Assembly (NCBI GenBank): GCA_017303485.1
Contig: JAFLCY010000026.1
Coordinates: 1 to 42,679 of the forward strand
Reading direction: 5' to 3'
Source: Rhodobacterales bacterium
GTDB taxonomy: Bacteria; Pseudomonadota; Alphaproteobacteria; Rhodobacterales; Rhodobacteraceae
Length of the DNA: 42,679 nt
Shown here: positions 648 through 16,620 of the stretch, piece after piece
How the letters are laid out: every line of letters starts with the position of its first letter
How positions within the stretch are numbered: the stretch's first letter is position 1
Translations under genes and position numbers: made by a program
Notes under the pieces: generated by a model
What the model was told of the DNA's origin: nothing
Seen by the model: only the letters and a program-made list of their open reading frames with translations
The model's database searches: none

Positions 648-649
648 GC

Positions 650-1249: not shown

Positions 1250-1257
1250 GGCCGGGT

Positions 1258-2232: not shown

Positions 2233-3020
2233 GTCGGCGTGAAGCGGAGCGACAGGCAGGACATGCCGCCGTCAAGCTTGGCGCATTCGGAATTGCCGAT
2301 CTCGCGCAGGTTGAACCCGGCGGTGGCGATGGTGTCGCGGGTGCGGGGGAAGCCTGCGGGCATCAGGACAAGATCGTTGAAGCGGATGGTGTTGGCGGCG
2401 GCTTCCTCGCCCTCCGGGATGTCGATGACCCTGTAACCGTGGAAACAGCCGGAGGCCGACAGGCGCCGGGTCGACAGGATGGTTTCTGCGTCGAGAAGCG
2501 AGCAGTCGGTCTTGAAATGCAGGACGCCGGGCGGGGTGTGAACCTCGCGCACCGTATGGCCCCAGGGCGCGACGAGGCGGGCAAGTTCGGCGATCCCGGC
2601 GGCATTGGTGCGGGCCGAGCGGCCGACGAGGATTTCCCGTTCGGTGACAAGGATGTCGCCGCCCTCGATGAAACTGTCCGCGCTGGTGATCGCGACCACC
2701 TGCGCGTAGAGCGCGCGGAGATGCGGGGCCATTTCGGTGGCCTCTCCCAACCGGCTGGGCGCTCCGGGGCGCATGATGACGGCGCCCTGGGGCAGGCATA
2801 GCGCGGTGTCCTCGACGAAGACCGAATCCGGATAGGCGTCCAGCGCTGGAAGCTCGACGACCTTGGCGCCGGTCTCGCGCAGTGTCGCGATGTATGCGTC
2901 GTGATGCGCCTGCATCACCGCAAGGTCGGGGTTCCCGGTATCCACCGCGCGCAGGCCCCGGGTGATCGAGGCCGCCGGGCGGCGGGTGATGGCGTGGGTG
3001 AAACGGAAGGAGAAGGACAT
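2229..3020 (-). CDS. Dimethylarginine dimethylaminohydrolase-like (amidinotransferase superfamily)
   Basis: A 263-residue enzyme of the DDAH/arginine-deiminase fold, which hydrolyses methylated arginines or related guanidino compounds to citrulline and an amine. Visible motifs are TRGLRA near the N-terminus, DSVFVEDTALCLP, SFIEGGDILV, LHFKTDCSLLD with the putative catalytic His, and GGMSCLSLRF at the C-terminus with the nucleophilic Cys. The start at ATG 3020 gives the normal family N-terminus (MSFSFRFTHAITRRP); the longer open frame upstream looks non-coding. It is first in a two-gene operon with the DxD protein. The start lies about 110 bp from the island's left attachment site, so before integration this gene lay beside tRNA-Tyr. 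Exact substrate uncertain. Confidence 0.88.
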   Translation of the reverse strand: MSFSFRFTHAITRRPAASITRGLRAVDTGNPDLAVMQAHHDAYIATLRETGAKVVELPALDAYPDSVFVEDTALCLPQGAVIMRPGAPSRLGEATEMAPHLRALYAQVVAITSADSFIEGGDILVTEREILVGRSARTNAAGIAELARLVAPWGHTVREVHTPPGVLHFKTDCSLLDAETILSTRRLSASGCFHGYRVIDIPEGEEAAANTIRFNDLVLMPAGFPRTRDTIATAGFNLREIGNSECAKLDGGMSCLSLRFTPT

Positions 3021-3131
3021 GCCGAAGATGTCGCACCCCGCAGGCAGCAGTGCAAGGCCATCGCCGACCGGAAAGCCAGTTCGGGCAAGCCAGTGGCCCA
3101 GCACTGTCAGATTGCACACATTTCCTTTGGA

Positions 3132-3150
3132 AATGGTGGGCGACCCTGGA
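3132..3150. repeat. attL core (19-bp copy of tRNA-Tyr 3' end)
   Basis: The sequence aatggtgggcgaccctgga is identical to 13879-13897. It contains the reverse complement of CCA, the discriminator, the 7-bp acceptor strand and the start of the T stem of tRNA-Tyr. No functional tRNA is left on this side; identity stops exactly at both ends of the 19 bp. It marks the island's left boundary. Confidence 0.88.
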
Positions 3151-3198
3151 TCGTCGATTTTGCCCAGCCAAACCCTTATTTCTAAGGCGTTTTCTTAA

Positions 3199-3238
3199 CC
3201 TTGGTCACAGGCAGATTACCCCGGTTTGTATACCAAAA
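3199..3238. promoter_or_regulatory. Left-arm integrase-type sites
   Basis: CCTTGGTCACA (3199-3209) is the inverted form of TGTGACCAAGG found at 13809-13819. TGTATACCAAAA (3227-3238) is identical, and in the same orientation, to 13796-13807. Both motifs occur just inside the two ends of the element and share the core ACCAA, so they look like arm-type binding sites for the integrase or an excisionase. The rest of 3151-3245 holds no gene. Confidence 0.45.
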
Positions 3239-3245
3239 CAAGGGG

Positions 3246-3512
3246 TCAAAACACCCGGAAGCCCCCCAGCTTCGGGATCAGGTCATCTAGCGTGGCCAGT
3301 GTGTCGGAGGTGAGCTTCATCCGGCGGAAGTCGTCTGCGACCCTGAGAAGCCGGAATAGGTCGGTATGGGTGAGGCCCGCTGCCAAGAGTTCATGCAGAC
3401 GCACCCTGACAACCCAATCCAGGAACGCCGCGAACGCCGCCCCGATTTCCTCGGGGCTGGCACCCTCGTCTGGCATCATCGGGGGTGGCGGGAGAGTTCT
3501 GCGGGCGGTCAT
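3246..3512 (-). CDS. Unrecognised 88-aa protein, last gene of the capsid operon
   Basis: Not recognised. It is an 88-residue, mostly helical protein with a Pro-rich start (MTARRTLPPPPMMPDEG) and an amphipathic region (FLDWVVRVRLHELLAAG, FRLLRVADDFRRMKL). It lies 12 bases after the preceding 129-aa gene, so it belongs to the same minus-strand operon, and it ends near the left attachment site. No membrane segment or signal peptide is present. By exclusion it could be the missing small terminase subunit, a size-redirecting factor or a neck component, but nothing in the sequence decides this. Confidence 0.65.
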   Translation of the reverse strand: MTARRTLPPPPMMPDEGASPEEIGAAFAAFLDWVVRVRLHELLAAGLTHTDLFRLLRVADDFRRMKLTSDTLATLDDLIPKLGGFRVF

Positions 3513-3524
3513 GGGCTGCCACCT

Positions 3525-3914
3525 CTATGCGGTTCGGATCAAGGGGGCGTCATCATCGGCAAGAGACGTGCAGGCATAGGTGATTGAAGTGCCCAAGGCG
3601 TCGGCACTGTGCACGTGATCGATGGTGTAGAAGGTGCCATCTAGAAGGATCAGGGCCGCACCGTTCGGGGCCACCTCGGATAGGACCGTGACCAAGGCTT
3701 TGCCGACATACCCCGGCCCCAGGGTGAGCACGGTTTCCTTGGACCTATCGACATAGCCAAGGGTCACTTCGGCACTGTCAAACTGCAACTCCCCTGCGGC
3801 GGTGTAGACCGGAGAACCCGCATCGGTGGCGGTGACATACACCTTTGCCTGCCGGAAGGCCGGATTATGGGCAGCGGCCCGCTTGGCGGTTTGCAGGGGA
3901 GAAAGTCGGGTCAT
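3525..3914 (-). CDS. Putative head-completion/head-tail joining protein
   Basis: A 129-residue protein whose ATG (3914-3912) overlaps the portal gene's TGA as ATGA. After a basic N-terminus (MTRLSPLQTAKRAAAHNPAF) it is beta-rich, with segments such as AKVYVTATDAG, AEVTLGYVDRSKETVLTLG and ALILLDGTFYTIDHVHSAD. Size, beta character and position after the portal fit a head-closure or joining protein of the HK97-type neck, but I do not recognise a conserved motif, so function rests on context. The longer in-frame extension to 4184 lies inside the portal gene and is a shadow. Confidence 0.7.
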   Translation of the reverse strand: MTRLSPLQTAKRAAAHNPAFRQAKVYVTATDAGSPVYTAAGELQFDSAEVTLGYVDRSKETVLTLGPGYVGKALVTVLSEVAPNGAALILLDGTFYTIDHVHSADALGTSITYACTSLADDDAPLIRTA

Positions 3915-4927
3915 TCGTATGCCTCGCCCCAGCCCGCGTATTTCATCGCATCGGCAAGGGGCACTCCCGCCCCCACAAGCACCCCTACCGCGCGAGCACG
4001 GCCCGCGACATCGGCGGACATCATCTGCGCAATCGATACGCTTTCGACCCCGATCTTGCGGGACAGTTCGGGGGTGCATTGACGCGCCAGAGGCAGCACC
4101 GTCTGAAGCGCAAACAGTCGATAGCCTTCCCGCATGGCACCGGCATTGCCGTTCGCGGTCACAAGAGCCGGGGGAATGCCGCACCCCGCCAATAGCCGGT
4201 AATGCAGGTCAGAGGTGAATAGGTTGAGGTCAGCCTTCTGCAGATCGGGGGTGAGGTCCACCCGCCGAAACTCGGACTCGCGTCCCCCGGTCTGGTGCGC
4301 GTAGTCCGCTTTGGAAGAGACTACCGCCAGGGATGACGACTGAAGCCCCACGGCGGCTTTCTGCTGTTGCTCTTCGGTGATGCTGGAGGGCATCGGCAGA
4401 AGGCCTTTGCCCGCGTAGGGCATGGCATTGCTGACTGCCTTTTCGATCTCGGCAATCAGCGTGGGGGAAAGGCCCATCATCCGCCAAGGGGACCGGCCCC
4501 GCCAGGGCTGGGCAGGGTCGGCATTGATCACCAGCTTCAGGACTTCGCCTTCCAATGCCCGCCGGGTTTCGGTGGTGTTCGGCTTGGCGATGTGGAGGTG
4601 GTAGCGACCGTTCGCGAGTTCATCCCAATAGGCGACGGGATCAAGCACCAGGGCAGAGCCTTCGGCCCGGATATGCCAGCAACTCTCCCCCTTCAAAAGC
4701 AGGTCGCGACCCATAGCGGCCAGGGTGGCAGGGTCCACGGGCACCGGGGAGAGGTCGAGCATGGCGAAGGCAGATGACCAGTAGTGCAGCGCAGTGCCCA
4801 CGGTCGCGGACAAGGCCACGGTTCCATCCGTCAGAAGCCCCCGGCGGCGGTTGTCCATGTAGTCGAGGGTGATCCCGAGCGAGGACCGTTGCTCTAGGTC
4901 GGGTTTCTTGCGGAAGGGCCAGATCAT
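3911..4927 (-). CDS. Phage portal protein (HK97-type)
   Basis: A 338-residue portal, somewhat shorter than typical HK97 portals (about 400). It starts MIWPFRKKPDLEQRSS. Recognisable stretches are AAMGRDLLLKGESCWHI, VLDPVAYWDEL, PWRGRSPWRMMGLSPTLIAEIEKA and the late portal block LLAGCGIPPALVTANGNAGAMREGYRLFAL. Portals form the dodecameric ring at one capsid vertex through which DNA is pumped and to which the neck attaches. The gene is coupled at both ends: its ATG overlaps the stop of the connector gene (4924) and its own TGA overlaps the next start (3914). Reduced length is common in compact satellites. Confidence 0.88.
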   Translation of the reverse strand: MIWPFRKKPDLEQRSSLGITLDYMDNRRRGLLTDGTVALSATVGTALHYWSSAFAMLDLSPVPVDPATLAAMGRDLLLKGESCWHIRAEGSALVLDPVAYWDELANGRYHLHIAKPNTTETRRALEGEVLKLVINADPAQPWRGRSPWRMMGLSPTLIAEIEKAVSNAMPYAGKGLLPMPSSITEEQQQKAAVGLQSSSLAVVSSKADYAHQTGGRESEFRRVDLTPDLQKADLNLFTSDLHYRLLAGCGIPPALVTANGNAGAMREGYRLFALQTVLPLARQCTPELSRKIGVESVSIAQMMSADVAGRARAVGVLVGAGVPLADAMKYAGWGEAYE

Positions 4928-5487
4928 ATGCGCACCTCACCCGCCAACAAGGCCCCTGCCCCCGAACCCCGGAAGACTGGCATCAAGGCTTCGCGGCTGA
5001 AGCTGAAGTCTCCCGATGACTGCGATTTGAATTCCCGCCGCGAGGGGGCGTGGATCAACTGATACAGGGCGAGGTTTTGAACCGCCTGCACAACCCCGGC
5101 AGACACCGGTGCACCGGGCACCGTGCCCTCTTGGGTGAGGCGGTAGAGGGTGAACGGTTCAAGATCGATGGTGCCTACGTCTGCGATGTAGCGGGCGGAA
5201 GACGGAACCCAAACACCGCCGCTGTAGGCCTCTACGGTCAAGGCGGCCGGAAAGGGACAACGGGGCCAGCGGAAAGGAACCGCAGAGGCCAGTTTGACGA
5301 TCACCTTCCCCGCGTCCATGTCGCGATACATCGTGCCCGTGAAGGCTTCGACCATTGCCCAAGAGGCGCTGAGCATGGCTTCCGCTTCCGCCTCGGTGCA
5401 GTCGGCTTCAAGCGCCACGTCTGCGGCGACGATTGAGGTGGTCGGGTCCGCCCCAGGCGTGAAGCTGGTTTCCAAGAGTGCGATCAT
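4924..5487 (-). CDS. Head-tail connector/adaptor protein (gp6-like)
   Basis: A 187-residue protein with ATG at 5487 overlapping the protease TGA as ATGA. The layout resembles HK97 gp6-type adaptors: an N-terminal helical part (VALEADCTEAEAEAMLSAS, WAMVEAFTGTMYRD), a central beta insertion (PFPAALTVEAYSGGVWVP, IADVGTIDLEPFTLY) and a C-terminal helix (GVVQAVQNLALYQLIHAPSRREF). Adaptors bind below the portal and form the first ring of the neck. The gene lies between protease and portal in an unbroken run of overlapping genes. The call rests on architecture and context. Confidence 0.7.
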   Translation of the reverse strand: MIALLETSFTPGADPTTSIVAADVALEADCTEAEAEAMLSASWAMVEAFTGTMYRDMDAGKVIVKLASAVPFRWPRCPFPAALTVEAYSGGVWVPSSARYIADVGTIDLEPFTLYRLTQEGTVPGAPVSAGVVQAVQNLALYQLIHAPSRREFKSQSSGDFSFSREALMPVFRGSGAGALLAGEVRI

Positions 5488-6077
5488 GGGAGGATGATCC
5501 TGTGTGGACAGGGCACCGGGGTCTGGGCAGCGAAAGCCCGAAGTTCGGCTTCGCTGTCGCCATAGGCGGGCCGTGTGACAATGCTGAGTTCGTAGAGGAT
5601 CAACGCCCAAAGCTGGCGGATCATGACGCCGGGATTGCCCGGTTCGGGGATTAGCTTTTCCGCCCCCGGCACCACGTCAGAAGGCGGCACTCGGAAACCG
5701 GGCGAGATACCACGCGCAAGGCCGGAACCGATCAGGGCAAGAGCATCCACCACATGGGAAGCCCGTTCTGCCCCTTCCGGGATCGTGGCGACGAATTCAA
5801 GGAAGTCTTCCGTGTCCTTCAGGGCCAAGGTTCCCGAAGATCGGGACGCAAGCGGCTTGTCGAAAGAGTGCCCGAACAAGAGATTGATTTCCCGTGTCAG
5901 GTCGCCAAGGGCGAAGCTGAACGCCCCCGGCATGATGGTTTCCTTCCGCACCGTGCCCCGGTCGGACAGCACGGCAAGGGAGTTGTAGAGGAAGCGGCCC
6001 GCGATGATCGGGCGGCTGTTTTGCTGCCGAACCTCTAGGCCTTCGGCGGGCCAGATCATGCGGGACGCTTCCATCAC
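5484..6077 (-). CDS. HK97-family prohead protease
   Basis: A 197-residue serine protease that cleaves the capsid's N-terminal scaffold during prohead maturation. Typical motifs are RPIIAGRFLYNSLAVLSDRG at the N-terminus, LLFGHSFDKPLASRS with the catalytic His near residue 70, and LYELSIVTRPAYGDSEAE with the catalytic Ser near 165. Translation probably starts at GTG 6077 or the next codon, ATG 6074; the capsid stop codon TAA (6080-6078) immediately precedes the GTG. Its TGA overlaps the connector start. In most HK97-like phages the protease precedes the capsid; here it follows. Confidence 0.9.
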   Translation of the reverse strand: MMEASRMIWPAEGLEVRQQNSRPIIAGRFLYNSLAVLSDRGTVRKETIMPGAFSFALGDLTREINLLFGHSFDKPLASRSSGTLALKDTEDFLEFVATIPEGAERASHVVDALALIGSGLARGISPGFRVPPSDVVPGAEKLIPEPGNPGVMIRQLWALILYELSIVTRPAYGDSEAELRAFAAQTPVPCPHRIILP

Positions 6078-7340
6078 TTAGGCCCGATCTTGGACAGCGG
6101 TCAGCTTGAAGAAATGCGTTGCCGTCCGCTGGATGAGCACGTCCAGGAAGGCAAACATAGTCAGGGCGACCTTGCCCGACTTGCTTTCGCTGTAGGGGTC
6201 CACGATCAATTCCGGGCTGCCCCAGGTCGGGACGTAGGCATTGTTGCTGCCTGCCCCAAAGAAGACCGTGGAGGCACCCTTGCCCGTCCCGTCGCGGGCA
6301 CCACGTGCGGACACCTGCGATGAGAAGACGGGCGAGAACCCTGCAGACTTCAGCCGGTCCAGTTCGGAGACTGCCGTGCCAGTGATTAACGTGTCGGCAA
6401 GAGTCTGCATCAGGATCGGGGCACCAGCAATGCGCACCGCCGAAGGATCGGCCAGCTTGGCGGTTTCCATGATTTCCACGGCCCGGAGCAACAGAGCGGA
6501 GAAGCTTGCCTTGGCCGTGAGGGCGGCAGTGCGGCCCCCGGTTAGAGAAGCCCCAAAACCGGCAGGTTGCTGATCAGCCCCGGTCCCCCGGAAGACGGCA
6601 AGGTCGATACCCTCCCGCAGCACTTCCGAGAGGTCGCGGCGCAGGATCGGTTCAAGGGCAGAATTCTGCCGGATGGCTTGACGGGTCAGGACGTAGCGGC
6701 CCGTCGCCGTCTTGATGGCCGGAGTCTTGCTGGTGGTGGTGATCGCCTCGGCATCAGCCCCCGACCCTTCGGCGACCCAAGACAAGCCGACCCCATCGGT
6801 GATTTCAGGGAAGACAGGGACGCCCGACACCTGCAGCACGTTGACCCCGAACCGGCCAGCGGCAGAGGCTTCGAAGAACCGTTCCAGGGCGTTCATGACG
6901 GGGCGCGAGGCGAGTTCCTGAGAGGTGCCCGCGCTGGCATCAATCGGGGCATCCGCACGGGTTTCCAATGCTTCCCACGGGAAGCGCAGACCCTTCTGCC
7001 CAGAGCCGTGACGCTGTTCCAGTTCCGCCGAAACCTCGGCCTCCCGGCCTGTCAGGGCTTTGCCTTCCGTCATCGCCCCGACCATCGCCGCCATTTCGAA
7101 GCTGCGGCATTCACGGGCGAAGTCGGTGGTGGCCTTGTCGGGTTCCTTGATCTTGTCGCGTTCGGCCCCTTCGACCAGGAGCGCGGCCCGAAGTTCCACC
7201 TCAGCCCCTTCATAGGCATCGGCGAGCGAGCGCAGTTCCGTGCGGGCGTCTTCGGTGATTTCGCTGGCCTTTTGGATTTGGGCCATTTTCTCGCGGCGCT
7301 TGGATTGCGCCAGTTGGATTTCCTGAGATTTCAGCATCAT
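6078..7340 (-). CDS. HK97-fold major capsid protein
   Basis: A 420-residue capsid subunit. Residues 1-110 are charged and helical (the delta or scaffold domain removed by the protease), starting MMLKSQEIQLAQSKRREKMA. The HK97 fold follows from about residue 135, with GVNVLQVSGVPVFPEITDG, VAEGSGADAEAITTTS, YVLTRQAIRQNSALEPILRR, an AVFRGTGADQQPAGF block and the C-terminal axial part PELIVDPYSESKSGKVALTM. Length matches the uncleaved HK97 family. The gene follows the 213-aa gene by 14 bases and abuts the protease. It is the clearest evidence that the island makes its own heads. Confidence 0.93.
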   Translation of the reverse strand: MMLKSQEIQLAQSKRREKMAQIQKASEITEDARTELRSLADAYEGAEVELRAALLVEGAERDKIKEPDKATTDFARECRSFEMAAMVGAMTEGKALTGREAEVSAELEQRHGSGQKGLRFPWEALETRADAPIDASAGTSQELASRPVMNALERFFEASAAGRFGVNVLQVSGVPVFPEITDGVGLSWVAEGSGADAEAITTTSKTPAIKTATGRYVLTRQAIRQNSALEPILRRDLSEVLREGIDLAVFRGTGADQQPAGFGASLTGGRTAALTAKASFSALLLRAVEIMETAKLADPSAVRIAGAPILMQTLADTLITGTAVSELDRLKSAGFSPVFSSQVSARGARDGTGKGASTVFFGAGSNNAYVPTWGSPELIVDPYSESKSGKVALTMFAFLDVLIQRTATHFFKLTAVQDRA

Positions 7341-7354
7341 AGCGCCTTTCAGTG

Positions 7355-7996
7355 TTAGTTAAGGGGTTTGGTGAGTGCGTCGAACAAGGCCGTGAGGGCA
7401 CGGTCAGCGAAGTCTGGGAAGTCGGCTTTCACCTGACTGACCAGCCCCAGGCGCGGACGCACGCGCACCTGTGATTTCAGAGCGTAGAGGGGGATCAGCT
7501 TCCGGCCTTTGCGCTGGAAAAGGATCAGGTTCCCCGCCTTGCTTTCGCGGATGAACGTGTCCTGCCACTGTCGGGGGTTCAGTTTCTTGGGAGTGCCGTC
7601 CGGGTTCAGGGCATCGGGCAGCGGGACGAACAGATATCCGTCCTTGGGCTTTGTCGTGCCCCCGTATTCCTGCACCTTGTATTGGCCCGGAAGCCTGATC
7701 TCGGCTTGGACATCGGCAATCTTTCCGGCTTCGGTGACTGTCCCTGCGGACTTCAGGGATTTGACCAGCGTGCCGGTGCGGGTCGCAAGGCTGGTGTCGG
7801 TGGTGATCGGTCCCGAATGTCTTTCCGCCAGCTTGTCGAGTTCCGCACGGATGAAAGACTTCATCTCGCGGGAAAGGACGTGGCTGTAATCGTCCATGCT
7901 CTTGTTGAGCGACTTGGCAAGCGCGTGAAGGCCTCGGGCCGCGTCCCGGTATCTCTTGTTCCCGTAGCTGACAGAGAGTTCGACTGCCTGTGTCAT
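7355..7996 (-). CDS. HK97 gp10-like neck/tail-completion protein
   Basis: A 213-residue basic protein. The N-terminus is helical (YRDAARGLHALAKSLNKSMDDY, IRAELDKLAERHSGPI). The centre has TRTGTLVKSLKSAGTVTE and the block VQEYGGTTKPKDGYLFVPLP, and the C-terminus has NLILFQRKGRKLIPLYALK. An amphipathic N-terminus followed by a Gly/Lys-rich core ending in an 'LIPLYALK.QV' block is typical of HK97 gp10-like or virion-morphogenesis proteins that complete the head-tail interface. The ATG at 7996 overlaps the upstream gene's TGA (7993). It lies just before the capsid gene. Confidence 0.72.
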   Translation of the reverse strand: MTQAVELSVSYGNKRYRDAARGLHALAKSLNKSMDDYSHVLSREMKSFIRAELDKLAERHSGPITTDTSLATRTGTLVKSLKSAGTVTEAGKIADVQAEIRLPGQYKVQEYGGTTKPKDGYLFVPLPDALNPDGTPKKLNPRQWQDTFIRESKAGNLILFQRKGRKLIPLYALKSQVRVRPRLGLVSQVKADFPDFADRALTALFDALTKPLN

Positions 7997-8487
7997 GTCG
8001 CCACCGGATCAGGGGCGAATTCGCCAAAGCGGGTGCGGGGGTCGTGCGGATCGTGCCGGTAGTGGACGGTGAGGAAGACACTGCCTTCCGCCGTGAGCGT
8101 GTCGGGGTGATCGAGGTCCACCACGTTCCCGCCGTCCTGCACATCGATTGCGAGGCCGTTCAATGTGTGGTCTTTCAGGACACGGCGAAGGATCATGCCG
8201 CCGATGGTTTCGGCAATGATTGCAGGCACCTCGCCAGTCTGCGCCCGATAGCGGAAGTCGATTGCCACGTCCAGGAAGCAGGTAGTCAGGTCGATCTTTG
8301 CCGTCTTGGTTTCCTTTGTGGGAACGATCCCGACGGAGAGGCGCTTGGAGGTCGATTGCGGTAACGGTCCCCGGAAGACTTCCCCGAAGCTGAGGGGATA
8401 GGGATCGTCCAGGGGGTGCCCAGCGGTTACGTCCGAAAGGCTGAGATACAGAGTTTGGAGGATGGCTTCCCGAAAAGTGCTGCCCAT
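7993..8487 (-). CDS. Putative tail-terminator/neck protein
   Basis: About 164 residues from ATG 8487 (MGSTFREAILQTLYLSL); an upstream ATG at 8529 would overlap the HNH gene by 38 bases and is less likely. The pattern is that of small neck or tail-terminator proteins: an N-terminal helix, a long beta hairpin region (SKRLSVGIVPTKET, LTTCFLDVAIDFRY), a helix (EVPAIIAETIGGMILRRVLKD) and a final GSVFLTVHYRHDPHDPR strand. No signature decides the exact role. It sits between HNH and gp10-like genes in the same operon and overlaps the latter by ATGA. A tail-terminator homologue on a tail-less satellite would make the docking surface for a helper tail. Confidence 0.62.
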   Translation of the reverse strand: MGSTFREAILQTLYLSLSDVTAGHPLDDPYPLSFGEVFRGPLPQSTSKRLSVGIVPTKETKTAKIDLTTCFLDVAIDFRYRAQTGEVPAIIAETIGGMILRRVLKDHTLNGLAIDVQDGGNVVDLDHPDTLTAEGSVFLTVHYRHDPHDPRTRFGEFAPDPVAT

Positions 8488-8491
8488 TGTG

Positions 8492-8866
8492 TCAAGTCCC
8501 ACTTTCTTGGGGCGTGCAATTAATTGCACTCAATATGGCGTGGTGGAATTCGTCCCGGCCTTGCACGTTTGATCGCCTGATCTCACCCGTCCGGTCCCGG
8601 CGCTGGTGGCCCTCCCACCTTTCCGAGATGCTCTTTGCGTTGTGGCAGGGCGGGCAGAGGTATTGGAGGTTGTCACGCGCCCACGGGCTGAGGCCTGCCT
8701 TCCGACCCTTGGCGCGGCTGATGACGTGATCAACGTGACCCTGCATCCCGCAGAACGTCCCGCACCGTTCGCAACGATAGCCCGCCCGGTGCGCGATCTC
8801 GGCACGGACGCGCACCCTCCAATGGTGCGTCCCGATGGTGCTGCGATCTTGGACACGCTTCACCAT
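8492..8866 (-). CDS. HNH endonuclease (packaging-associated)
   Basis: A 124-residue protein starting at ATG 8866 (MVKRVQDRST), inside the end of the TerL gene (7-base overlap). It carries a zinc-ribbon HNH motif: YRCERCGTFCG, then VDHVISRAKGR, then NLQYLCPPCHNAKSISER. HNH proteins beside terminase are part of the packaging machine in many HK97-like cos phages, where they assist TerL cleavage at cos. Its presence and coupling to TerL suggest cos-type packaging rather than headful, although no cos site was identified by eye. In the usual order HNH precedes the terminase genes; here it follows TerL. Confidence 0.87.
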   Translation of the reverse strand: MVKRVQDRSTIGTHHWRVRVRAEIAHRAGYRCERCGTFCGMQGHVDHVISRAKGRKAGLSPWARDNLQYLCPPCHNAKSISERWEGHQRRDRTGEIRRSNVQGRDEFHHAILSAINCTPQESGT

Positions 8867-10392
8867 AGCGCCACCTCGTATTCCGGCTTGGGGGCGTCCA
8901 TTGCCGAGACAAAGGCAGAGCAAGCGAGGCAGAGGGCTTGCGCGACGTCGATCCGCGCATTCCGGTGGGATCGATCGATTTGCATTGCCCCGGTGGTCGA
9001 AACCTTCACATCGGTTTCAGCAATGGCGGCTTCGATCAGGAGAGACCGCTTCAGCTTGGCTTTGCCGCTTAGGAAAAGGCGGCGGGTAGCCCGAATGTCA
9101 TTGTCGCCGTCTTTCGGCCCGGTCCCGCGCGTAATCAGAGGCCAATCAACCTTGGCCCTCGCCATAGCCATGAGGAATTCCGCGTGTCTGTAGCGGTCGC
9201 CACTGATCGAAGCCACCGGATGGGTGCCGATTTCATCCCTGAGCCGGGAGAGGAATTCGGCTATATCGGTGATGGCCCCGGATGTTTCGAAAAGTTCGCC
9301 GGACTCGGCTAGGCTGACGTAGAGGTTGCCGACCCCATCGCGCTTTCCACGCTGTGCTAGGTCGAGGTCACCTTCACCGGGAAACGCAGCAAGCGCCCGG
9401 ATCACGCAGCTTTCCTTATAGACGATGACGGCGGCAGTCATCGCTGCAGAGCCGCCCAGGTCGAGGCCCACAAAGCAGGGTTCGTCGGGGATGGGCTGGG
9501 CAGTCGGATCATAGGCCCGCTGCAGGGTGCCATACTCGATCAGAAGCTGCCGGGACGGGGAAAGCGGTTGATTGGTCTGCCACACCCGGAATTCAGTCAA
9601 GCTGCCGGACTTTTCCGCCTTTTCGAAAGCGTCCCTCATGAACGAAACCGACTTGATGCTGCCAAGGCCGGGGTTTGAGGCTGCCCACACGCCGGGGTCG
9701 GAGACGTCGTCCGACAGATCGGCGGCGTAGAGGTGGACGGCGGTGCGGGCGTCGGGGCGTTCGAGAATTGCCCGGAAGTGCGGATTGTCGCCTTGCGTTC
9801 CGGTGAGGATCACCCTTCCATTGCGCGCACCCACCGCGTCGAAGACGTTCTGCAAGGACTCGTTAGAGTTCGGCAGAAGGCCGGTTTCGTCCACAATGCC
9901 AAGGTCGATATCTAGTCCGTGCCCGGAGTTCCGGGTGCCGCTGAGAAACTGCAGCTTCCCCCCACGCGGCCCATGCAACACCCCCGGCAGCGGGGACCGC
10001 ACGAACGATATCCCGGGGTTGACCCCTGAGGCTTCTAGGATGTCGATAACCTGATTGCCGACGATTTGGGCATGCACCACAGACGGAGCCGTCACCGCCC
10101 CCCGGAAGCCGGGAATGAACAATGGGCTGCCTGGGCACATGTAGCCCAGGATCAGCGCCCCCACGGTTGCGGTCTTGCCGTTCTTCCGGGGCGTGCTGAG
10201 AACCGTTGTCCGGTATCGCGGCCCTCCATCTGGATCATCGGCCAGATGGTCGCGAAGGAAGGCGAGTTGGAACGGCAGGAGGGTGAGAGGTTCACCCCGG
10301 GATGGTCCGGCAGGCACGACGAAGGTGTCTCCTAACCATTCGGCCAGCAAGCCCACGCGATCCGCCTTCAGCTTCTTCCGAATGGTGATCAA
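8860..10392 (-). CDS. Terminase large subunit (TerL)
   Basis: The DNA-packaging motor and nuclease. Taken from TTG 10392 it is 510 residues, normal for TerL. Features: N-terminal LLAEWLGDTFVVPAG and LLPFQLAFLRDHL; Walker A STPRKNGKT at 66-74; Walker B IDLGIVDETG with the acidic pair near 168; coupling motif VILTGTQGDN; nuclease domain starting FVGLDLGGS with Asp near 311 and later acidic residues. The frame stays open to an ATG at 10710, but those 106 extra residues look non-coding. The TTG overlaps the stop of a short frame as TTGA, and an AGGCGG lies upstream. No ATG exists between, so the true start is uncertain. I see no P27-type TerS. Confidence 0.88.
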   Translation of the reverse strand: MITIRKKLKADRVGLLAEWLGDTFVVPAGPSRGEPLTLLPFQLAFLRDHLADDPDGGPRYRTTVLSTPRKNGKTATVGALILGYMCPGSPLFIPGFRGAVTAPSVVHAQIVGNQVIDILEASGVNPGISFVRSPLPGVLHGPRGGKLQFLSGTRNSGHGLDIDLGIVDETGLLPNSNESLQNVFDAVGARNGRVILTGTQGDNPHFRAILERPDARTAVHLYAADLSDDVSDPGVWAASNPGLGSIKSVSFMRDAFEKAEKSGSLTEFRVWQTNQPLSPSRQLLIEYGTLQRAYDPTAQPIPDEPCFVGLDLGGSAAMTAAVIVYKESCVIRALAAFPGEGDLDLAQRGKRDGVGNLYVSLAESGELFETSGAITDIAEFLSRLRDEIGTHPVASISGDRYRHAEFLMAMARAKVDWPLITRGTGPKDGDNDIRATRRLFLSGKAKLKRSLLIEAAIAETDVKVSTTGAMQIDRSHRNARIDVAQALCLACSAFVSAMDAPKPEYEVALW

Positions 10393-11004
10393 CGCAGCAC
10401 CGCCTGCGTTCCTGCCAACTCCCAGCCCCCTTCGAGAGTTGGGGGGTTCCCCCCTCTGGCGGACAGGGTTCCCTTGGGCCTCTGGATTACCGCAGAGAGG
10501 GCTTTGCAGGCCGAGACGGGGCGAGACACCCGAACGCACTGCAACGCGCGTGGCACAAAGCCAATGAGGGAACAGACCGATTGCATCTGCGGGCGCACCA
10601 TCCAAGCCGAATTTGGGAGAGGTGCTGCCCGCCCGCTTTCGCGAGCGCCGATGGCTAAGGACATCGGCGGGCAACGTGATTTGATTACCAGTGACCGGGG
10701 CGAAGGTCAATCGGGTTGATTGCAGCTAATTGCTTGCGGGAGGCGGGGGCTATTGGGGGTGGAGGGCATAGGGTTAAACACCTGCACCCTGTGGCCACTG
10801 TTTGCCCAGTTCCATCTTCCCCGAAACCCTCTCCGAAACCTGATCGACCTAAGCTGACCGACCCAAGCGCAGCGCAGGCGTCGTGTCACTGATCTTCGTC
10901 TTCAAACTGAGGAAAGATGAAATCTTTCCGAATCCCTGTCCCCTACTTAAAAGAGGAAGATTAGATTCTATGTAGTGGACAAGGTGGGTTCGGAAAGTTC
11001 TCGT
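10393..11004. other. Long stretch without a convincing gene between TerL and the 229-aa gene
   Basis: About 610 bases without a credible coding frame, although TerL's frame is open back to 10710. It holds a perfect GGGGGG-TT-CCCCCC inverted repeat (10441-10454), two CCGAAACC repeats 12 bases apart (10821-10828, 10833-10840), and an unusually AT-rich patch at about 10940-10980 flanked by TTCGGAA-type repeats. The promoter of the capsid operon should be here, but I cannot place it with confidence. Confidence 0.55.
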
Positions 11005-11035
11005 CTATTCGGAAGATTGTGCTTTGGGTTCGGAA
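10926..11035. other. Candidate replication origin: TTCGGAA repeats around an AT-rich patch
   Basis: TTCGGAA occurs at 10989-10995, 11008-11014 and 11029-11035, spaced 19 and 21 bp (about two helical turns), and in inverted form (TTCCGAA) at 10926-10932. Between the inverted and direct copies lies an AT-rich stretch (10945-10975) that stands out from the GC-rich surroundings. The direct repeats span the 3' end of the 229-aa gene and the bases after it. Iterons beside an initiator gene with an AT-rich unwinding element is the usual layout of satellite and plasmid origins. Function is inferred. Confidence 0.4.
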
Positions 11036-11694
11036 GGTTTCAGGTGTTGCCAAAGCTTCGGGTGCAGGGCCACGATGGATGGTGGTGGCGGTAGCTGGTT
11101 CGCTTGCAGGTGCATGACATACATTTCCAAAGCCATCGAATGAAACGCCCGGATGACCGCAATCGAGGGGAAATCATGACGGCGATGGAATGCGTTCTTG
11201 CCCTCCGCTATGAGGTCATCCACCACGATAGCGACTAGCGCCTTGAAGCCCTTCCAATCGTTCAAAACCAATCGAAAGATTTCAGCCTGCACACCATCCG
11301 GCCAGAATTGGGCCAGCCCCTTCAGCATACCGAAGTCCCTCGGCGACGGCTTCCGTCCCGTCTTGTCGGTGAAGACCTTCGCCATGATGTTCGCGACATG
11401 GCGGTCACTCTTGGCACCGGGTTCGCCAAGCCGCAGCAGCACCGTCTTCTTGCCCTCAACCTGCGTTGTGGTGGTGCAGATCGGAGGCATCTTAATAAGG
11501 TTGCGCACCGTCCTTTCATCCACACCTAGCAAACTGGACCAGTCGGGTTGCGAACGAACGGCCCAGGTGTATCCTTCGAATTCCTGAGGTTGTTCTGCAA
11601 TGTCGGCGGCAATAAGCTGACAAAGCTTCTGATGCCTCAATTGCTTGTCTTTCCTCAATTCTTTGATCCTTGCATTTACTGCCAGGATCAGCAA
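11005..11694 (-). CDS. Unrecognised 229-aa protein with HTH-like segment; possible replication initiator or regulator
   Basis: Not recognised by family. The first 45 residues are basic and helical (ARIKELRKDKQLRHQKLCQL). Near residues 53-68 WSSLLGVDERTVRNLIKM looks like a helix-turn-helix. Later helical parts include VANIMAKVFTDKTGRKPSPR and FRLVLNDWKGFKALVAIVVD. There is no ATG at the N-terminus; the open frame starts at TTG 11694 without a good ribosome-binding site, and an overlapping frame with an ATG at 11767 raises the possibility of a frameshift or different start. Position beside iteron-like repeats suggests an initiator; a packaging-operon regulator is the alternative. No primase or helicase motif is present. 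Confidence 0.6.
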   Translation of the reverse strand: MLILAVNARIKELRKDKQLRHQKLCQLIAADIAEQPQEFEGYTWAVRSQPDWSSLLGVDERTVRNLIKMPPICTTTTQVEGKKTVLLRLGEPGAKSDRHVANIMAKVFTDKTGRKPSPRDFGMLKGLAQFWPDGVQAEIFRLVLNDWKGFKALVAIVVDDLIAEGKNAFHRRHDFPSIAVIRAFHSMALEMYVMHLQANQLPPPPSIVALHPKLWQHLKPSEPKAQSSE

Positions 11695-11761
11695 TTCTTA
11701 CGCCGTGACCTAGCTTGGTAACCTCGGTCGCAATCCTGACTGATCCTCGGGGTTTCAAGGT

Positions 11762-11799
11762 GGGCACTCCGTCGCGCAGGCGGGGTGCCCTTTCTCTTT
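11762..11799 (+). terminator. Intrinsic-terminator-like hairpin
   Basis: GGGCACTCC (11762-11770) pairs with GGGGTGCCC (11782-11790) in a 9-bp stem with an 11-nt loop, followed on the plus strand by TTTCTCTTT. The T-rich tail fits termination of plus-strand transcripts, yet no plus-strand gene is visible in the island. On the minus strand it lies directly after the 93-aa gene and could still act as a hairpin between the two small genes. Confidence 0.5.
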
Positions 11800-12079
11800 A
11801 CAACTGATTTGCAGCGAGTTCTTTTTGCAGCCGTTTGAACGTTGCCCGATAGCTGTTCCGAAACACCGTAGACACGCGCTGGCTTTTTTCGCCACTGAGC
11901 ATGAAAGGCTCAAGGAACCTGTTCAGAGCGTCCCTTTGACGCTCACCATGCTGGTGTCGCCACGGCTTTGGATTTTCGGCGAAGAAAGCTATCGCCTCGG
12001 CTTCACCTGTCTTGTCGGCGAGCACCAGAATTTCGGCATATGTCGCGGGCGGCTTGGCGGGTTTGCGCAGCGTGATCAT
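11798..12079 (-). CDS. Unrecognised 93-aa protein coupled to integrase
   Basis: Not recognised. A 93-residue soluble, basic and helical protein: AKPPATYAEILVLADKTGEA, then AIAFFAENPKPWRHQHGERQ, ending FKRLQKELAANQL. Its ATG (12079-12077) overlaps the integrase TGA as ATGA, with GGAGGAAAG just upstream inside the integrase gene, so it is clearly co-translated. A small gene coupled to an integrase is often an excisionase or regulator, but no AlpA- or Xis-like helix-turn-helix is evident. It is followed by the hairpin at 11762-11790. Confidence 0.7.
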   Translation of the reverse strand: MITLRKPAKPPATYAEILVLADKTGEAEAIAFFAENPKPWRHQHGERQRDALNRFLEPFMLSGEKSQRVSTVFRNSYRATFKRLQKELAANQL

Positions 12080-13788
12080 AGCTTTCCTCCAACGCCGTGT
12101 AGGAAGGTTAGATCGAGGCCGGGATAAGCGATTGCGTCAACGTATTCCCGATGCAGATCGGGGTTGCCCACATCCCCATAGTCGTCCGAAACAGACTTGC
12201 CAGCCGGTGTCCAGCCGCAGACGGCTAGAAGGGTGTCCGCAGGAGCCTTCACGCGACGGAGTGCGTCCCTGACATTGTGGCGAAGGCTGTAAAATGTTTG
12301 CCGTTCCTGCAGTGTGATTTCCTCGGGAATGAAGGTGTCCCGCAAACGCTTCGAAGCATAGGCGGCAAGCGACCCATATTTGTCCGGCTTCAGTTCGGCG
12401 AAAATGCGGGGCTCTTTCGGGCCGTTCCTTTTGCGGCGTGCTTCCACGAATTCCAGAAAGCCGATCTTGACCAATTCGGAGTGCAGAGGAACACGGCGAC
12501 GGCTAGAGCCGGTCTTAAGCGTCTTGCCGTTTTCGTCGCTCAGGCTGAAATACCACGTCCCCGCCTCTGTCTGGCGAATGTCGTCACAATGAAGCTGGGC
12601 CAGCTCATTGGGCCTAGCACCACTGAAAAGCATCAAGAGGGGCAACCAGAACCGCCAGCCTTTGTCTTTCAGTGTGTAGGGGCTTGGCAGGTCCGAAGCG
12701 CAGCGATGGTAGAACTTGCCCTCAAAGAACCCCTTCACCTGATTAGCGTCCCAGGGCATCCGCTTTTCGGCCTCGGTTTCCTTGTCTTTCTGCAGCGGCT
12801 TCAACCCGGTTGCCGGGTTGTTCGGGATTAGGTTCCGCACCCGTCCGGCCTCTAGAATGTCGAAAAGGCAGCGGAGATACAGGCCTTGGCTTTTGATGGA
12901 CAAGACGGGCTTGCCAGCCTTTGCCGCCCGGTCGATTTGCTGTTGCAGGGTCAGACCAGGAAAGACTTTGTTACGGTTTGCCGGCACCTTGGCGATTAGG
13001 ACGCGGAACGCCTGCACCCGGTCGTAGGTGATGCTGACCAAGCCGGTTTCCGCCCCCAGGGCTTCCTTGATCAAGGCAATCTCGCCCTCGATCCTGTCGC
13101 CGCGCTTTTCGTTTGTCTGGTTCGCCGCGAGTTCGGCTGACTTGACCGTCCAATAGACGTTGCAGAGTTCGCCGAAGGTAACCGGGGGTGCGTTCTGAGT
13201 GTCGAATAGCGGATCGTGCGGTCTTGCGCTGAAGTCGTCCCTGAGGCGGTCAAGGCGGCGGTGTTGCAGTTCCATGAGGCCACGGCGGACAATCTCCGCA
13301 AAGCCTGTCAGAGCTTCCTTTTGGCTGAGACTGCCCCCGGCCTGCACCAGCACCTTGTCGAAAACAGAGGCGACCCAACGGTCCCCGTCGGGGTCGTCCC
13401 GGTCCTTCAGGACGTGCAGGTCGATGCCCACGTCCTTCAAGCGTTCCACCCTTTCGAGTTCGGTTTCCGGCGGGTCTGCAGCAAGGCTGGCGGCGCTGCG
13501 CTGATCAAGGCCCTTAATGTGCTGGCGGAGGTGTTCAGTCAGCACGGCAAGAGACATCGGGGCAGGGGGCGTGTCGGTTCCCTGCACCTCTACCGCCGCA
13601 AACTCCGCGTCTATTTGGACGTTCAGGGCGTTCCGAAGGATTTTCGCCTTTTTCAGGTCGGATGTGCCCAGGCTTTTCTTGACGAATGCCTTGCCGACTA
13701 CCGGCACAAGGGCGGTAGGCACTCTTCGGTAGTAGTGCCAAGCGTTGCCACGCTTCTGGAGGTGGTGAGTCTCGGCCATCTTTCGCAT
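12076..13788 (-). CDS. int: Tyrosine-recombinase integrase
   Basis: A 570-residue integrase, long for the family. The N-terminal region (residues 10-60) reads KRGNAWHYYRRVPTALVPVV and KSLGTSDLKKAKILRNALN, the DUF6538-type start of many alphaproteobacterial integrases. A long helical linker leads to a core-binding domain (FGELCNVYWTVKSAEL). The catalytic domain has Arg392 in LFSGARPNELAQL, His504 and Arg507 in YSLRHNVRDALRR, and the putative nucleophile Tyr537 in SVSDDYGD. Start is ATG 13788 or 13779. It lies about 90 bp from the tRNA-Tyr 3' end in the same direction, the classic position for a tRNA-targeting island integrase, and its gene is coupled to the 93-aa gene. Confidence 0.95.
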   Translation of the reverse strand: MRKMAETHHLQKRGNAWHYYRRVPTALVPVVGKAFVKKSLGTSDLKKAKILRNALNVQIDAEFAAVEVQGTDTPPAPMSLAVLTEHLRQHIKGLDQRSAASLAADPPETELERVERLKDVGIDLHVLKDRDDPDGDRWVASVFDKVLVQAGGSLSQKEALTGFAEIVRRGLMELQHRRLDRLRDDFSARPHDPLFDTQNAPPVTFGELCNVYWTVKSAELAANQTNEKRGDRIEGEIALIKEALGAETGLVSITYDRVQAFRVLIAKVPANRNKVFPGLTLQQQIDRAAKAGKPVLSIKSQGLYLRCLFDILEAGRVRNLIPNNPATGLKPLQKDKETEAEKRMPWDANQVKGFFEGKFYHRCASDLPSPYTLKDKGWRFWLPLLMLFSGARPNELAQLHCDDIRQTEAGTWYFSLSDENGKTLKTGSSRRRVPLHSELVKIGFLEFVEARRKRNGPKEPRIFAELKPDKYGSLAAYASKRLRDTFIPEEITLQERQTFYSLRHNVRDALRRVKAPADTLLAVCGWTPAGKSVSDDYGDVGNPDLHREYVDAIAYPGLDLTFLHGVGGKL

Positions 13789-13795
13789 ACCCCTG

Positions 13796-13872
13796 TGTAT
13801 ACCAAAATTGTGACCAAGGGGTGTGAAAAAAGCCCAGCTAATACAGTGATCTATGCAAAATCAATGTATTAG
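13796..13872. promoter_or_regulatory. Right-arm integrase-type sites and 13-bp inverted repeat
   Basis: TGTATACCAAAA (13796-13807) and TGTGACCAAGG (13809-13819) match motifs just inside the left end. Beyond them CTAATACAGTGAT (13838-13850) and the reverse complement of CTAATACATTGAT (13860-13872) form an inverted repeat of 13 bp with one mismatch and a 9-nt centre. Read on the minus strand the repeat is followed after six bases by six T's. It could be an operator for int, an excisionase site, or a terminator protecting int from tRNA-Tyr read-through. Confidence 0.45.
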
Positions 13873-13878
13873 AGGGGG

Positions 13879-13897
13879 AATGGTGGGCGACCCTGGA
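13879..13897. repeat. attR core (within tRNA-Tyr 3' end)
   Basis: This is the second copy of the 19-bp core found at 3132-3150. Here it forms the authentic 3' end of tRNA-Tyr, so the copy brought by the island restores the tRNA. Identity ends one base outside on each side. Confidence 0.88.
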
Positions 13898-13964
13898 ATC
13901 GAACCAGGCGTGGGTCGCCCCGGGGGAGTTACAGTCCCCTGCCGCACCTTGCAGCTCGTCGCCC
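13881..13964 (-). tRNA. tRNA-Tyr (anticodon GUA)
   Basis: The minus strand folds into a class II tRNA. Acceptor GGGCGAC pairs with GTCGCCC; the D arm follows; anticodon stem GGGGA/TCCCC has loop CTGTAAC with anticodon GTA; there is a long variable arm (GGGGCGACCCAC region) and a T arm CCTGG-TTCGATT-CCAGG. Discriminator A and a genome-encoded CCA complete the 84 bases. It is transcribed toward the island, and its last 17 bases are in the attachment core. Confidence 0.95.
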
Positions 13965-14895: not shown

Positions 14896-15005
14896 TCACA
14901 ACTCTGCGACAGGTCTTTAACCGGGGCTTCGGCCTTCTAAATACCATTGATGAGGCACGGGACCGGAACCCCGTACTCTCTTCACTGTCCCTCGTTCCGC
15001 GACTT

Positions 15006-15038
15006 GGCGCCTGAGGAACCCCTCGGGCGCCTTTTTCT
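15006..15038 (+). terminator. Rho-independent terminator
   Basis: GGCGCC-TGAGG, loop AACC, CCTCG-GGCGCC, then TTTTTCTT. The stem is 11 bp (one G-T type junction allowed) with a clear T-run on the plus strand. It lies 111 bases after the rlmB stop and just before the next gene's ribosome-binding site. It may terminate rlmB or a short independent transcript from 14900-15005. Confidence 0.75.
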
Positions 15039-15052
15039 TGACCGGAGACCCC

Positions 15053-15460
15053 ATGCCGAGTGAGTCCGAAATCCGTGACATCCTGACCAGCGTAAAGACC
15101 ATCGCCGTGGTCGGCTGGTCGCCCAAGCCTGACCGCCCGAGCCACGGGGTCGCTGCCTTTCTGAAACGGCGGGGCTATCGGGTGATTCCGGTGAATCCGG
15201 GGCAGGCGGGACAGCGGGCTTTGGGCGAGACGGTGGTGGCGACGCTGGCCGAGGCCGGGCCGGTGGACATGGTCGACATCTTCCGCCGCAGCGAAGAGGC
15301 GGGCGCGGTGGCCGACGACGCGGTCCGGCTGGGCGCGAAGGTGGTGTGGATGCAGCTTGGCGTGGTCGATGAGTCGGCAGCGGCGCGTGCGCGGGCAGCG
15401 GGGGTTCGGGTCGTGATGAACCGCTGTCCGGCGATCGAGATTCCACGGCTGGGGCTGTAG
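15053..15460 (+). CDS. CoA-binding domain protein (YccU-like)
   Basis: A 135-residue single-domain protein with a Rossmann CoA-binding fold. Seen are [50 protein letters not shown] and [20 protein letters not shown], ending [14 protein letters not shown]. The conserved MNRCP-x-IE ending is typical of the family, which resembles the CoA-binding part of succinyl-CoA synthetase but has no known catalytic activity. The start at ATG 15053 has GGAGA six bases upstream. It follows the terminator at 15006-15038, so it likely has its own promoter. Confidence 0.9.
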
Positions 15461-15461
15461 G

Positions 15462-15506: not shown

Positions 15507-15518
15507 ACCCGCTTTGGG

Positions 15519-15824: not shown

Positions 15825-16582
<758 letters not shown>

Positions 16583-16620
16583 GGAAGGTGAATGCCGCGC
16601 GGGCGGCTGAAAGGCAAGCC

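What the first reader, a model, noticed from the sequence alone, without database searches (positions are those of the whole stretch)
3132..13897. Tail-less, capsid-encoding satellite island in a Rhodobacteraceae-type genome
Integrase, attachment repeats, TerL, HNH, portal, protease, capsid, adaptor and neck-type genes are all intact, compact and mostly overlapping, yet there is no tail, tape-measure, lysis or repressor gene and no space for them. This is the gene content of capsid-forming phage-inducible chromosomal islands, which make their own small heads and use helper-phage tails. The replication/regulatory genes here (229 and 93 aa) are not the usual AlpA/primase types, so this may be a distinct lineage.
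Basis: partly seen in the sequence, partly recalled or inferred. Interest (0 to 1): 0.88.

Follow-up and report, generated by a model that had tools for sequence, protein, structure and literature searches.

The report
Capsid-making phage satellite borrowing tails
This is a 10.7-kb piece of mobile DNA in a marine-type bacterium that seems able to build its own virus head but must borrow a tail from another virus, and two of its proteins hint at which kind of virus that is.

Summary
Confirmed: an intact 10.75-kb tRNA-Tyr island with integrase, TerL, HNH, capsid, protease, portal and neck genes, but no tail-tube, tape-measure or lysis gene. Three congeners show the empty site. It is not a one-off deleted prophage: the head module recurs across Rhodobacteraceae, usually with other integrases, at Asn, Pro, Thr, Ser and Glu tRNA genes. 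All 12 islands of this lineage that I could bound are 10.0-11.2 kb; 17 bounded islands of a sister lineage (capsid about 33% identical) are 9.7-11.1 kb. The portal has no tblastn match in 50,697 phage genomes. It works like a capsid-forming PICI, but membership is not shown: gene order differs, no TerS, AlpA or primase was recognised, and capsid and portal show no significant similarity to one E. coli cf-PICI. New: the window's clade carries a tail-terminator-fold protein and a Neck1-like protein whose only phage matches are ~100-kb alphaproteobacterial siphophages such as the apparently virulent RcZahn; Neck1 was found in 3 of 380 Rhodobacterales genomes, each time in a satellite. This predicts helpers of that type and a satellite/helper junction at the tail tube. 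Helper dependence, particles and transfer are untested.

The parts
3129..3150 (.). attR-side repeat (15-nt core at 3134)
   Evidence: 22-nt repeat, 1 mismatch to 13876-13897; core occurs twice on the + strand of the window
13876..13897 (.). attL-side repeat, overlapping the 3' end of tRNA-Tyr
   Evidence: single core copy in three congeners with the empty site
13881..13964 (-). tRNA-Tyr (gta), integration target
12076..13788 (-). tyrosine integrase, 570 aa (DUF6538 + Phage_integrase)
   Evidence: (Phage_integrase below its curated cut-off), PHROG_1 8.7e-22; 74% identical integrase in L036
11798..12079 (-). 93-aa protein, overlaps the integrase by 4 nt; unknown (possible excision/regulatory role, inferred from place)
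   Evidence: no Pfam/PHROG hit at E 0.01; nothing under E 0.05
11005..11694 (-). 229-aa protein, probable replication initiator or regulator (inferred)
   Evidence: relatives at 30-41% in six other islands and 60% in L125; other islands carry 'replication initiation' PHROG hits among their accessory ORFs
8860..10710 (-). terminase large subunit (long form; many relatives start about 100 aa later)
   Evidence: PHROG_9 2.7e-55, TerL_nuclease 5.7e-14
8492..8923 (-). HNH endonuclease
   Evidence: Pfam HNH 5.6e-9
7993..8487 (-). tail terminator-fold protein, 164 aa
   Evidence: AF2 pLDDT 64.7; Foldseek to T5 p142, lambda gpU and others; RcZahn gp23 35%
7355..7996 (-). Neck1/gp10-type protein, 213 aa
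   Evidence: RcZahn gp22 32%, RHph_Y1_11 37%; Neck1 role inferred from its place next to the terminator
6078..7340 (-). HK97-fold major capsid protein, 420 aa
   Evidence: Phage_capsid 2.6e-10, PHROG_617 3.5e-26
5484..6077 (-). prohead protease (Peptidase_S78)
   Evidence: 1.5e-15
4924..5487 (-). head-tail adaptor-position protein, 187 aa
   Evidence: aligned in 13 relatives; no family hit; role inferred from place
3911..4927 (-). portal, 338 aa
   Evidence: Phage_portal 9.9e-6; PDB phage portal 9i8c E 0.008; no tblastn match at E 1e-5 in 50,697 phages
3525..3920 (-). head-completion/stopper-fold protein, 131 aa
   Evidence: AF2 pLDDT 83.8; best Foldseek hits are phage, SaPI and GTA necks, E 2e-3 upward
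3246..3512 (-). 88-aa protein ending the module, unknown
   Evidence: relatives at 28-54% in many group A islands

Best explanation
The island is an intact, integrative phage satellite that makes its own small HK97-type head and neck and uses a helper phage's tail. Steps. (1) Integrase-mediated excision at tRNA-Tyr: site, repeats and empty sites shown; excision inferred. (2) Replication, perhaps started by the 229-aa protein: inferred. (3) Packaging of a ~10.7-kb unit by its own TerL plus HNH into its own capsid: genes shown; capsid size inferred from the tight island length. (4) The portal-adaptor-stopper-Neck1-terminator stack presents a tail-side surface onto which the helper's tail tube docks: terminator and stopper folds predicted, docking inferred. 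(5) Release by helper lysis: inferred from the lack of lysis genes. In this clade the terminator and Neck1 resemble adjacent neck genes of RcZahn-like ~100-kb siphophages, so such phages, probably virulent, are the predicted helpers.
For: Anatomy. Empty sites in congeners G397, G191 and G406. The same tail-less module lies at other tRNAs, mostly with other integrases. Island length: 12 of 12 bounded group A islands 9,989-11,167 bp, mean 10,678, SD 338; 17 bounded group B islands (of 41 loci searched) 9,707-11,147 bp. pN/pS 0.14-0.42 in nine genes against two relatives. Portal without match in 50,697 phages. Group A capsids one clade, support 99/99. Terminator and stopper folds. Neck1 and terminator matched only in large alphaproteobacterial siphophages, adjacent in the four that have both. 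Neck1 in 3 of 380 order genomes, all three in satellites. RcZahn described as apparently virulent (PMC8601537, passages seen).
Against: No induction, particle or transfer data. TerS not identified. At 32-37% identity the RcZahn link is old, and RcZahn-like may only be the nearest sampled phages. Most group A islands lack the terminator gene, so any such mechanism is clade-specific. The Neck1 tree does not resolve how often the gene was taken up. The search for Neck1 in order genomes had no positive control among tailed prophages, and the IMG/VR scans used patterns from satellites, which favour close relatives. The terminator model has moderate confidence, six sequences and modest TM-scores (at most 0.59 on the query). 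pN/pS was measured with synonymous sites near saturation and without a non-coding control. Group A capsids join phage capsids (Mano, S-CBS3, CRP-406; 98/91) on flagged long branches, so their origin is unsure. Damaged copies exist: L066 (Pelagimonas MAG), and L042 with its portal in two ORFs.
Confidence: 0.75

Rival explanations
1. A prophage that lost its tail, lysis and regulatory genes and is decaying.
For: HK97-type gene kinds; damaged relatives exist (L066/L047, Pelagimonas MAG: only protease to 88-aa gene left; L042 portal in two ORFs).
Against: The same tail-less layout recurs at other tRNAs with other integrases; uniform length; all 13 ORFs open; pN/pS well under 1; no tailed relative found in the loci read.
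Confidence: 0.07
2. A capsid-forming PICI in the strict sense, i.e. a member of one of the published cf-PICI radiations with a temperate helper.
For: Same functional set of MCP, protease, portal, connectors, TerL and HNH as listed in PMC10690885, which also calls cf-PICIs widely distributed across Bacteria (passages seen).
Against: Against an E. coli EDL933 island taken as EcCIEDL933: MCP E 0.09, portal E 0.39, different gene order; no TerS, AlpA or primase recognised here. Neck genes point to large, apparently virulent phages. Only one cf-PICI was compared.
Confidence: 0.12
3. A satellite that docks its heads onto the tails of the resident gene transfer agent or of a resident prophage.
For: The own genome holds a tailed prophage-type cluster on contig C57 with tape measure, major tail protein, terminator and endolysin and a second portal on C2. 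A GTA protein is among the stopper's structural hits (rank 12).
Against: Window Neck1 and terminator do not match the C57 loci in a tblastn at E 1e-4. Profiles of adaptor, stopper, terminator and Neck1 hit no GTA or phage chain in the PDB at E 1. GTA genes were not compared directly.
Confidence: 0.12
4. An autonomous virus with an unrecognised very short tail or tail-less entry route.
For: Two genes (88 and 93 aa) have no assignment; the capsid set is complete.
Against: No room for tube, tape measure or receptor-binding proteins; no lysis gene recognised; a terminator and a stopper imply a tail.
Confidence: 0.04

Closest known systems
Capsid-forming PICIs (E. coli island taken as EcCIEDL933: L069 25330-39761)
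   Same: Chromosomal island with integrase and a complete head set (capsid, protease, portal, connector proteins, HNH, TerL) and no tail or lysis genes in the annotation.
   Different: Order here int-93-229-TerL-HNH-terminator-Neck1-MCP-protease-adaptor-portal-stopper-88; there int..DUF927 protein..MCP-protease-portal-closure-connector-HNH-TerS-TerL. Only protease (28%, 5e-9) and TerL (23%, 7e-9) match significantly, HNH marginally (0.02), capsid and portal not. No TerS, AlpA or primase recognised. 10.7 kb against an average of 14 kb given in PMC10803314 (passages). Extra tail-side neck genes.
Streptomyces satellites MulchRoom and MiniFlayer (PMC10690885, passages)
   Same: Encode capsid and packaging genes; associated with virulent helpers; MulchRoom is reported with a small capsid and a helper-length tail.
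   Different: The paper reports direct terminal repeats, no obvious replicases and Streptomyces hosts; sequences were not compared here.
Rhodobacter phage RcZahn and Rhizobium phages RHph_Y1_11 / RHph_TM16 (~100-kb siphophages)
   Same: Neck1 and tail terminator homologous (RcZahn and RHph_Y1_11: 32-37%, E 7e-18 to 6e-45), genes adjacent in the phages.
   Different: None of the other 11 window proteins matches the compared RcZahn and RHph_Y1_11 structural genes (12 and 9 proteins, TerL not among them) at E 0.1; the pair's order is reversed in the satellite.
PICMI, PLE, P4-like and classical PICI satellites
   Same: Small integrated elements that depend on a helper (9.5-18 kb on average for P4, PICI and PLE as given in PMC10803314, passages).
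   Different: As described there, these rely on helper capsids; this island has its own.

Membership tests
Capsid-forming PICI (definition in PMC10690885, passages) | Own MCP, head protease, portal and head-tail connector proteins | tested here: met
   stopper and terminator folds; adaptor by place only
Capsid-forming PICI (definition in PMC10690885, passages) | Own TerL and HNH | tested here: met
Capsid-forming PICI (definition in PMC10690885, passages) | Own small terminase subunit | tested here: inconclusive
   No TerS-type gene recognised; the HNH protein hits PHROG_4581 (TerS) only through residues 32-103, its HNH part
Capsid-forming PICI | No tail or lysis genes; relies on helper tails | tested here: inconclusive
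   No such family recognised in the window; reliance not testable
Capsid-forming PICI | Capsid falls in a published cf-PICI clade | tested here: inconclusive
   Only one cf-PICI available; blastp E 0.09; it lies far away with the C57 prophage on flagged long branches
PICI regulation/replication | AlpA-type regulator and primase/replicase | tested here: not met
   93- and 229-aa proteins without such hits; some other group A islands have excisionase- or replication-initiation-like PHROG hits
Phage satellite (functional) | Helper-dependent induction and transfer | not testable with these tools
   -
Integrative element at a tRNA | tRNA 3' end duplicated, empty site in relatives | tested here: met
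Deleted prophage | Relatives at the site or with the same genes carry a tail module | tested here: not met
   one lone tape measure in a group B island is the only tail gene met in the loci read

The most novel reading that the evidence does not exclude
A widespread alphaproteobacterial lineage of capsid-forming satellites specifies its helper with a swappable docking cassette. One clade carries a tail-side neck pair (Neck1 plus tail terminator) of the kind found in ~100-kb virulent siphophages, so its heads plug directly into tail tubes of such phages. Other clades lack the terminator, or both genes, and would plug in higher up the neck. If so, the helper of an unstudied satellite can be read from its genome.
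Probability: 0.35. Interest if true: 0.82.

Novelty: new variant of a known kind. Interest (0 to 1): 0.7.

Why it matters
One paper (PMC10803314, passages) places cf-PICIs primarily in Enterobacteriaceae, Pasteurella, Morganellaceae and several Firmicutes groups; another (PMC10690885, passages) calls them widely distributed. Here two tail-less lineages are common in Rhodobacterales (portal profile in 47 of 390 genomes), a major marine group. Their constant length suggests a fixed small head, testable by cryo-EM. The docking pair turns the usual unknown, which phage is the helper, into a direct test with isolated phages and laboratory strains.

Tried and rejected
Deleted prophage: rejected on recurrence, length, selection and absence of tailed relatives in the loci read. 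Chance repeats at the four weakest att pairs (14-16 nt): none of 500 shuffles and none of the other pieces of each locus (41, 41, 30, 41) reached the observed length. PDB profile searches with adaptor, stopper, terminator, Neck1 and the 229-aa protein gave only hits that look like chance; the capsid profile hit one major capsid entry, 8gta, at 1.4e-4. PHROGs gave nothing under E 0.05 for the window's neck proteins. The integrase scan of IMG/VR found no relative, although L036 carries one at 74%, so that scan misses relatives. Plasmid search with the portal: one record, 29%. A search of the own genome with part of RcZahn's tape measure found nothing (no positive control, so uninformative). In the capsid tree the closeness of group A to phages Mano, S-CBS3 and CRP-406 was not relied on because the program flags long-branch joins; group B is not supported as one clade there (40/16), so whether A and B share a tail-less ancestor is open.

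Limits. PHROG mass scans list only 25 of 56, 25 of 88 and 25 of 38 families; for group A the unlisted ones are single-member hits with E above about 4e-6, for group B unlisted tail hits are not excluded. One search covered 54 accessory ORFs of 12 islands plus 7 window proteins; one search covered 92 ORFs of 16 group B islands; one search covered 43 of the 184 downstream ORFs listed plus one more. ORFs were called mechanically. Group B att search: 17 of 41 loci gave a repeat of 18 nt or more within the ~11-19.5-kb stretches held. A weak tape-measure hit (E 0.007) to a transposase in L033 was dismissed. In one search the L056 row describes a neighbouring group B portal, not the group A portal of that locus. 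Fetched but not read: L137 (G409), L043, L067 beyond the ORF list. Literature: 10 searches listed no paper on such satellites in Rhodobacteraceae; PMC7174320, listed, was not opened. The original cf-PICI papers did not come up and no supplements could be read, so a prior listing there is possible. PMC12324425 (abstract) concerns 4.6-kb elements and was set aside; PMC6092414, PMC11773190 and PMC13345588 were seen in passages only.
Full report
Observation. The window holds a 10.75-kb island between a 22-nt repeat at 3129-3150 and its copy at 13876-13897, which overlaps the 3' end of tRNA-Tyr (13881-13964). Thirteen ORFs on the minus strand are open and fill 94.3% of it. Pfam and PHROGs name the integrase, TerL, HNH, HK97 capsid and S78 protease, and weakly the portal. 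The adaptor, stopper, terminator, Neck1, 229-, 93- and 88-aa proteins have no family at E 0.01.

The site. Of 21 genomes of the genus (own included), 20 match the right flank and 20 the left flank. In G397, G191 and G406 the two flank matches lie about 150-220 bp apart with a single att core, so these are empty sites. Other congeners have longer intervals here, up to about 8 kb in G404 and 5 kb in G411; I listed the ORFs of those two but did not annotate them. The capsid profile finds 2 of 21 genomes: the own one, and G409 with a weaker, group B-like match that I did not follow.

A family, not a deletion. The capsid finds close relatives (58-70%) in three of 394 family genomes besides the own one, plus one fragment, ten close IMG/VR contigs at 73-84%, and 12 named-genome loci in genera such as Jannaschia, Mameliella, Tateyamaria, Shimia, Phaeobacter, Pseudophaeobacter, Albibacillus, Thiosulfatihalobacter and Pseudotabrizicola (of its 14 loci, L066 is decayed and L067 is not a member). 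As far as each contig reaches, they show the run TerL-HNH-MCP-protease-adaptor-portal, with single genes missing or unrecognised in some, usually followed by stopper and 88-aa genes, and many end at a tRNA. The integrases are mostly of another type (Arm-DNA-bind_3 plus Phage_integrase in L044, L057 and L122); among the group A loci read only L036 shares the window's integrase. A portal scan adds 11 IMG/VR contigs with the same layout. Some named-genome and IMG/VR loci are the same element (for example L055 and L039), so these counts are not all independent. I call this group A.

A sister lineage. Capsids at about 33% identity belong to a second set of tail-less islands, most near tRNA genes (group B). 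The two replication proteins tested carry an AAA_25 domain; two group B capsids share 62% with each other and 33% with the window. The portal profile finds 47 of 390 order genomes (both groups) but only 2 of 385 in a class-wide draw: the own one and a group B island in another family.

Constant length. Exact repeats of 14-49 nt between the tRNA and the integrase side bound 11 more group A islands. With the window, 12 of 12 measure 9,989-11,167 bp (mean 10,678, SD 338). Seventeen of 41 group B loci gave repeats of 18 nt or more; these islands measure 9,707-11,147 bp. Accessory genes, integrases and sites differ, so a packaging limit is the natural reading (inference).

Are tails really absent? 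For 54 accessory ORFs of 12 group A islands plus 7 window proteins, the 25 listed of 56 PHROG families are replication initiation, excisionase, HNH and unknowns. In 42 of 68 loci examined a tRNA lies 0.3-4.2 kb downstream of the portal. Ten ORFs beyond the module in contigs without such a tRNA are integrases, a transposase, a primase, a methyltransferase, a nuclease/nSTAND-like protein, a replication-initiation-like protein or unknown. One exception belongs to group B: G905's island (L186) has a 547-aa tape-measure gene overlapping the end of the portal gene. The control, the tailed prophage-type cluster on contig C57 of the own genome, gives tape measure, major tail protein, fibre, terminator and endolysin. 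The portal has no match in 50,697 phages at E 1e-5, and a group B portal none at E 0.01; the capsid reaches 28% or less in the 20 listed of 26 records.

Selection. pN/pS against two relatives lies between 0.14 and 0.42 for nine genes, with synonymous sites near saturation.

The neck. AlphaFold2 of the 164-aa protein (pLDDT 64.7) matches tail terminators. Of 33 PDB hits at E 0.001 or better, all but three (4acv, 2gjv, 6sga) bear phage, pyocin-like or SaPI neck/tail titles; TM-scores are modest, up to 0.59 on the query. The 131-aa protein (pLDDT 83.8) has no hit at E 0.001, but 18 of its first 19 hits are phage, SaPI or GTA neck, connector or virion entries. tblastn of the 164-aa protein against 50,697 phages at E 0.01 hits 4 records, and of the 213-aa protein 8 records (one phage twice), all phages of Rhizobium, Agrobacterium or Rhodobacter with genomes of 97-110 kb. 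In the four phages that match both (RcZahn, RHph_Y1_11, RHph_TM16, RHph_I4) the two genes are adjacent; in JP1 the Neck1 match lies three genes before one annotated tail tube. None of the other 11 window proteins matches the compared RcZahn or RHph_Y1_11 structural genes at E 0.1. The Neck1 profile finds 3 of 380 order genomes at E 1e-6, all three satellites, and IMG/VR returns only satellite contigs, 8 and 5 loci; none of these searches had a tailed prophage as positive control. The window's pair does not match the C57 loci. RcZahn is described as apparently virulent, with a 297-nm tail, and as lysing or forming plaques on Dinoroseobacter shibae, where it could not be cultivated further (PMC8601537, passages seen). 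The terminator is limited to the window's relatives (L033-L036, L042, L065, L122, L124, L125). Neck1 also occurs without it in L038, L040, L041, L044, L056, L064 and L126. The tree groups ten satellite Neck1 proteins (91/95) but does not resolve the other four from the phages.

Mechanism. Best reading: excision, own packaging into an own small head, and completion of the neck up to a terminator that accepts a helper tail tube. The shared pair suggests helpers related to RcZahn-like phages. Shown: genes, site, recurrence, length, pN/pS, predicted folds, homology. Inferred: excision, replication, head size, docking, helper, release.

Comparison. A cf-PICI in E. coli EDL933 (identified by gene content and recall) has the same functions in another order plus TerS and a DUF927 protein. 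Only TerL and protease match significantly, HNH marginally (E 0.02), capsid and portal not. cfPICI capsids are said to form three radiations (PMC11389934, passages); whether this is a further one needs their sequences. Filed as a new variant of a known kind: it works like a cf-PICI, membership unproven.

Noticed in passing
L186 (G905:C1:218000-237500), 7550-9193 minus: A group B satellite island carries its own 547-aa tape-measure gene overlapping the end of the portal gene, with no tube gene noted nearby; of 47 genomes searched only G904 has relatives, in longer ORFs. It might reset the helper's tail length or be a relic.
   Followed up: partly
L122 3063 and L124/L125 (IMG/VR): Islands of the window's clade by most genes (portal 80-81%, TerL 84% in L122 and L125) have a best capsid ORF of only 56-57% to the window, and L122's capsid sits with another clade in the tree: the capsid gene seems to be exchanged among satellites.
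   Followed up: partly
L056 1-16008 (Rhodobacteraceae MAG ZodW_Metabat.71): A group B capsid-protease-portal set lies directly beside a group A island, as if two satellites share one tRNA-Glu site.
   Followed up: no
L184 (G808:C85) 623-3973 plus: An 1116-aa ORF whose start looks like a Cas9 RuvC motif (recalled, not tested) lies beside a group B island.
   Followed up: no
L129/L062 near 14183-19160 (L129 numbering): Beside a group A island: a second integrase-like gene, a 1067-aa metallophosphatase/nSTAND-like protein and a C5-cytosine methyltransferase, a possible defence cluster.
   Followed up: partly
L066/L047 (Pelagimonas MAG): Decayed group A island: only protease to the 88-aa gene remain, next to a capsid fragment.
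   Followed up: partly
G000:C57 12883-27978: Tailed siphovirus-type gene cluster in the window's own genome (tape measure, major tail protein, terminator, Neck1, fibre, endolysin, fused protease-capsid); no integrase sought.
   Followed up: partly
L093 (G404) and L094 (G411), tRNA-Tyr site: In other congeners the flanks of the tRNA-Tyr site are about 8 and 5 kb apart, with other genes between.
   Followed up: partly
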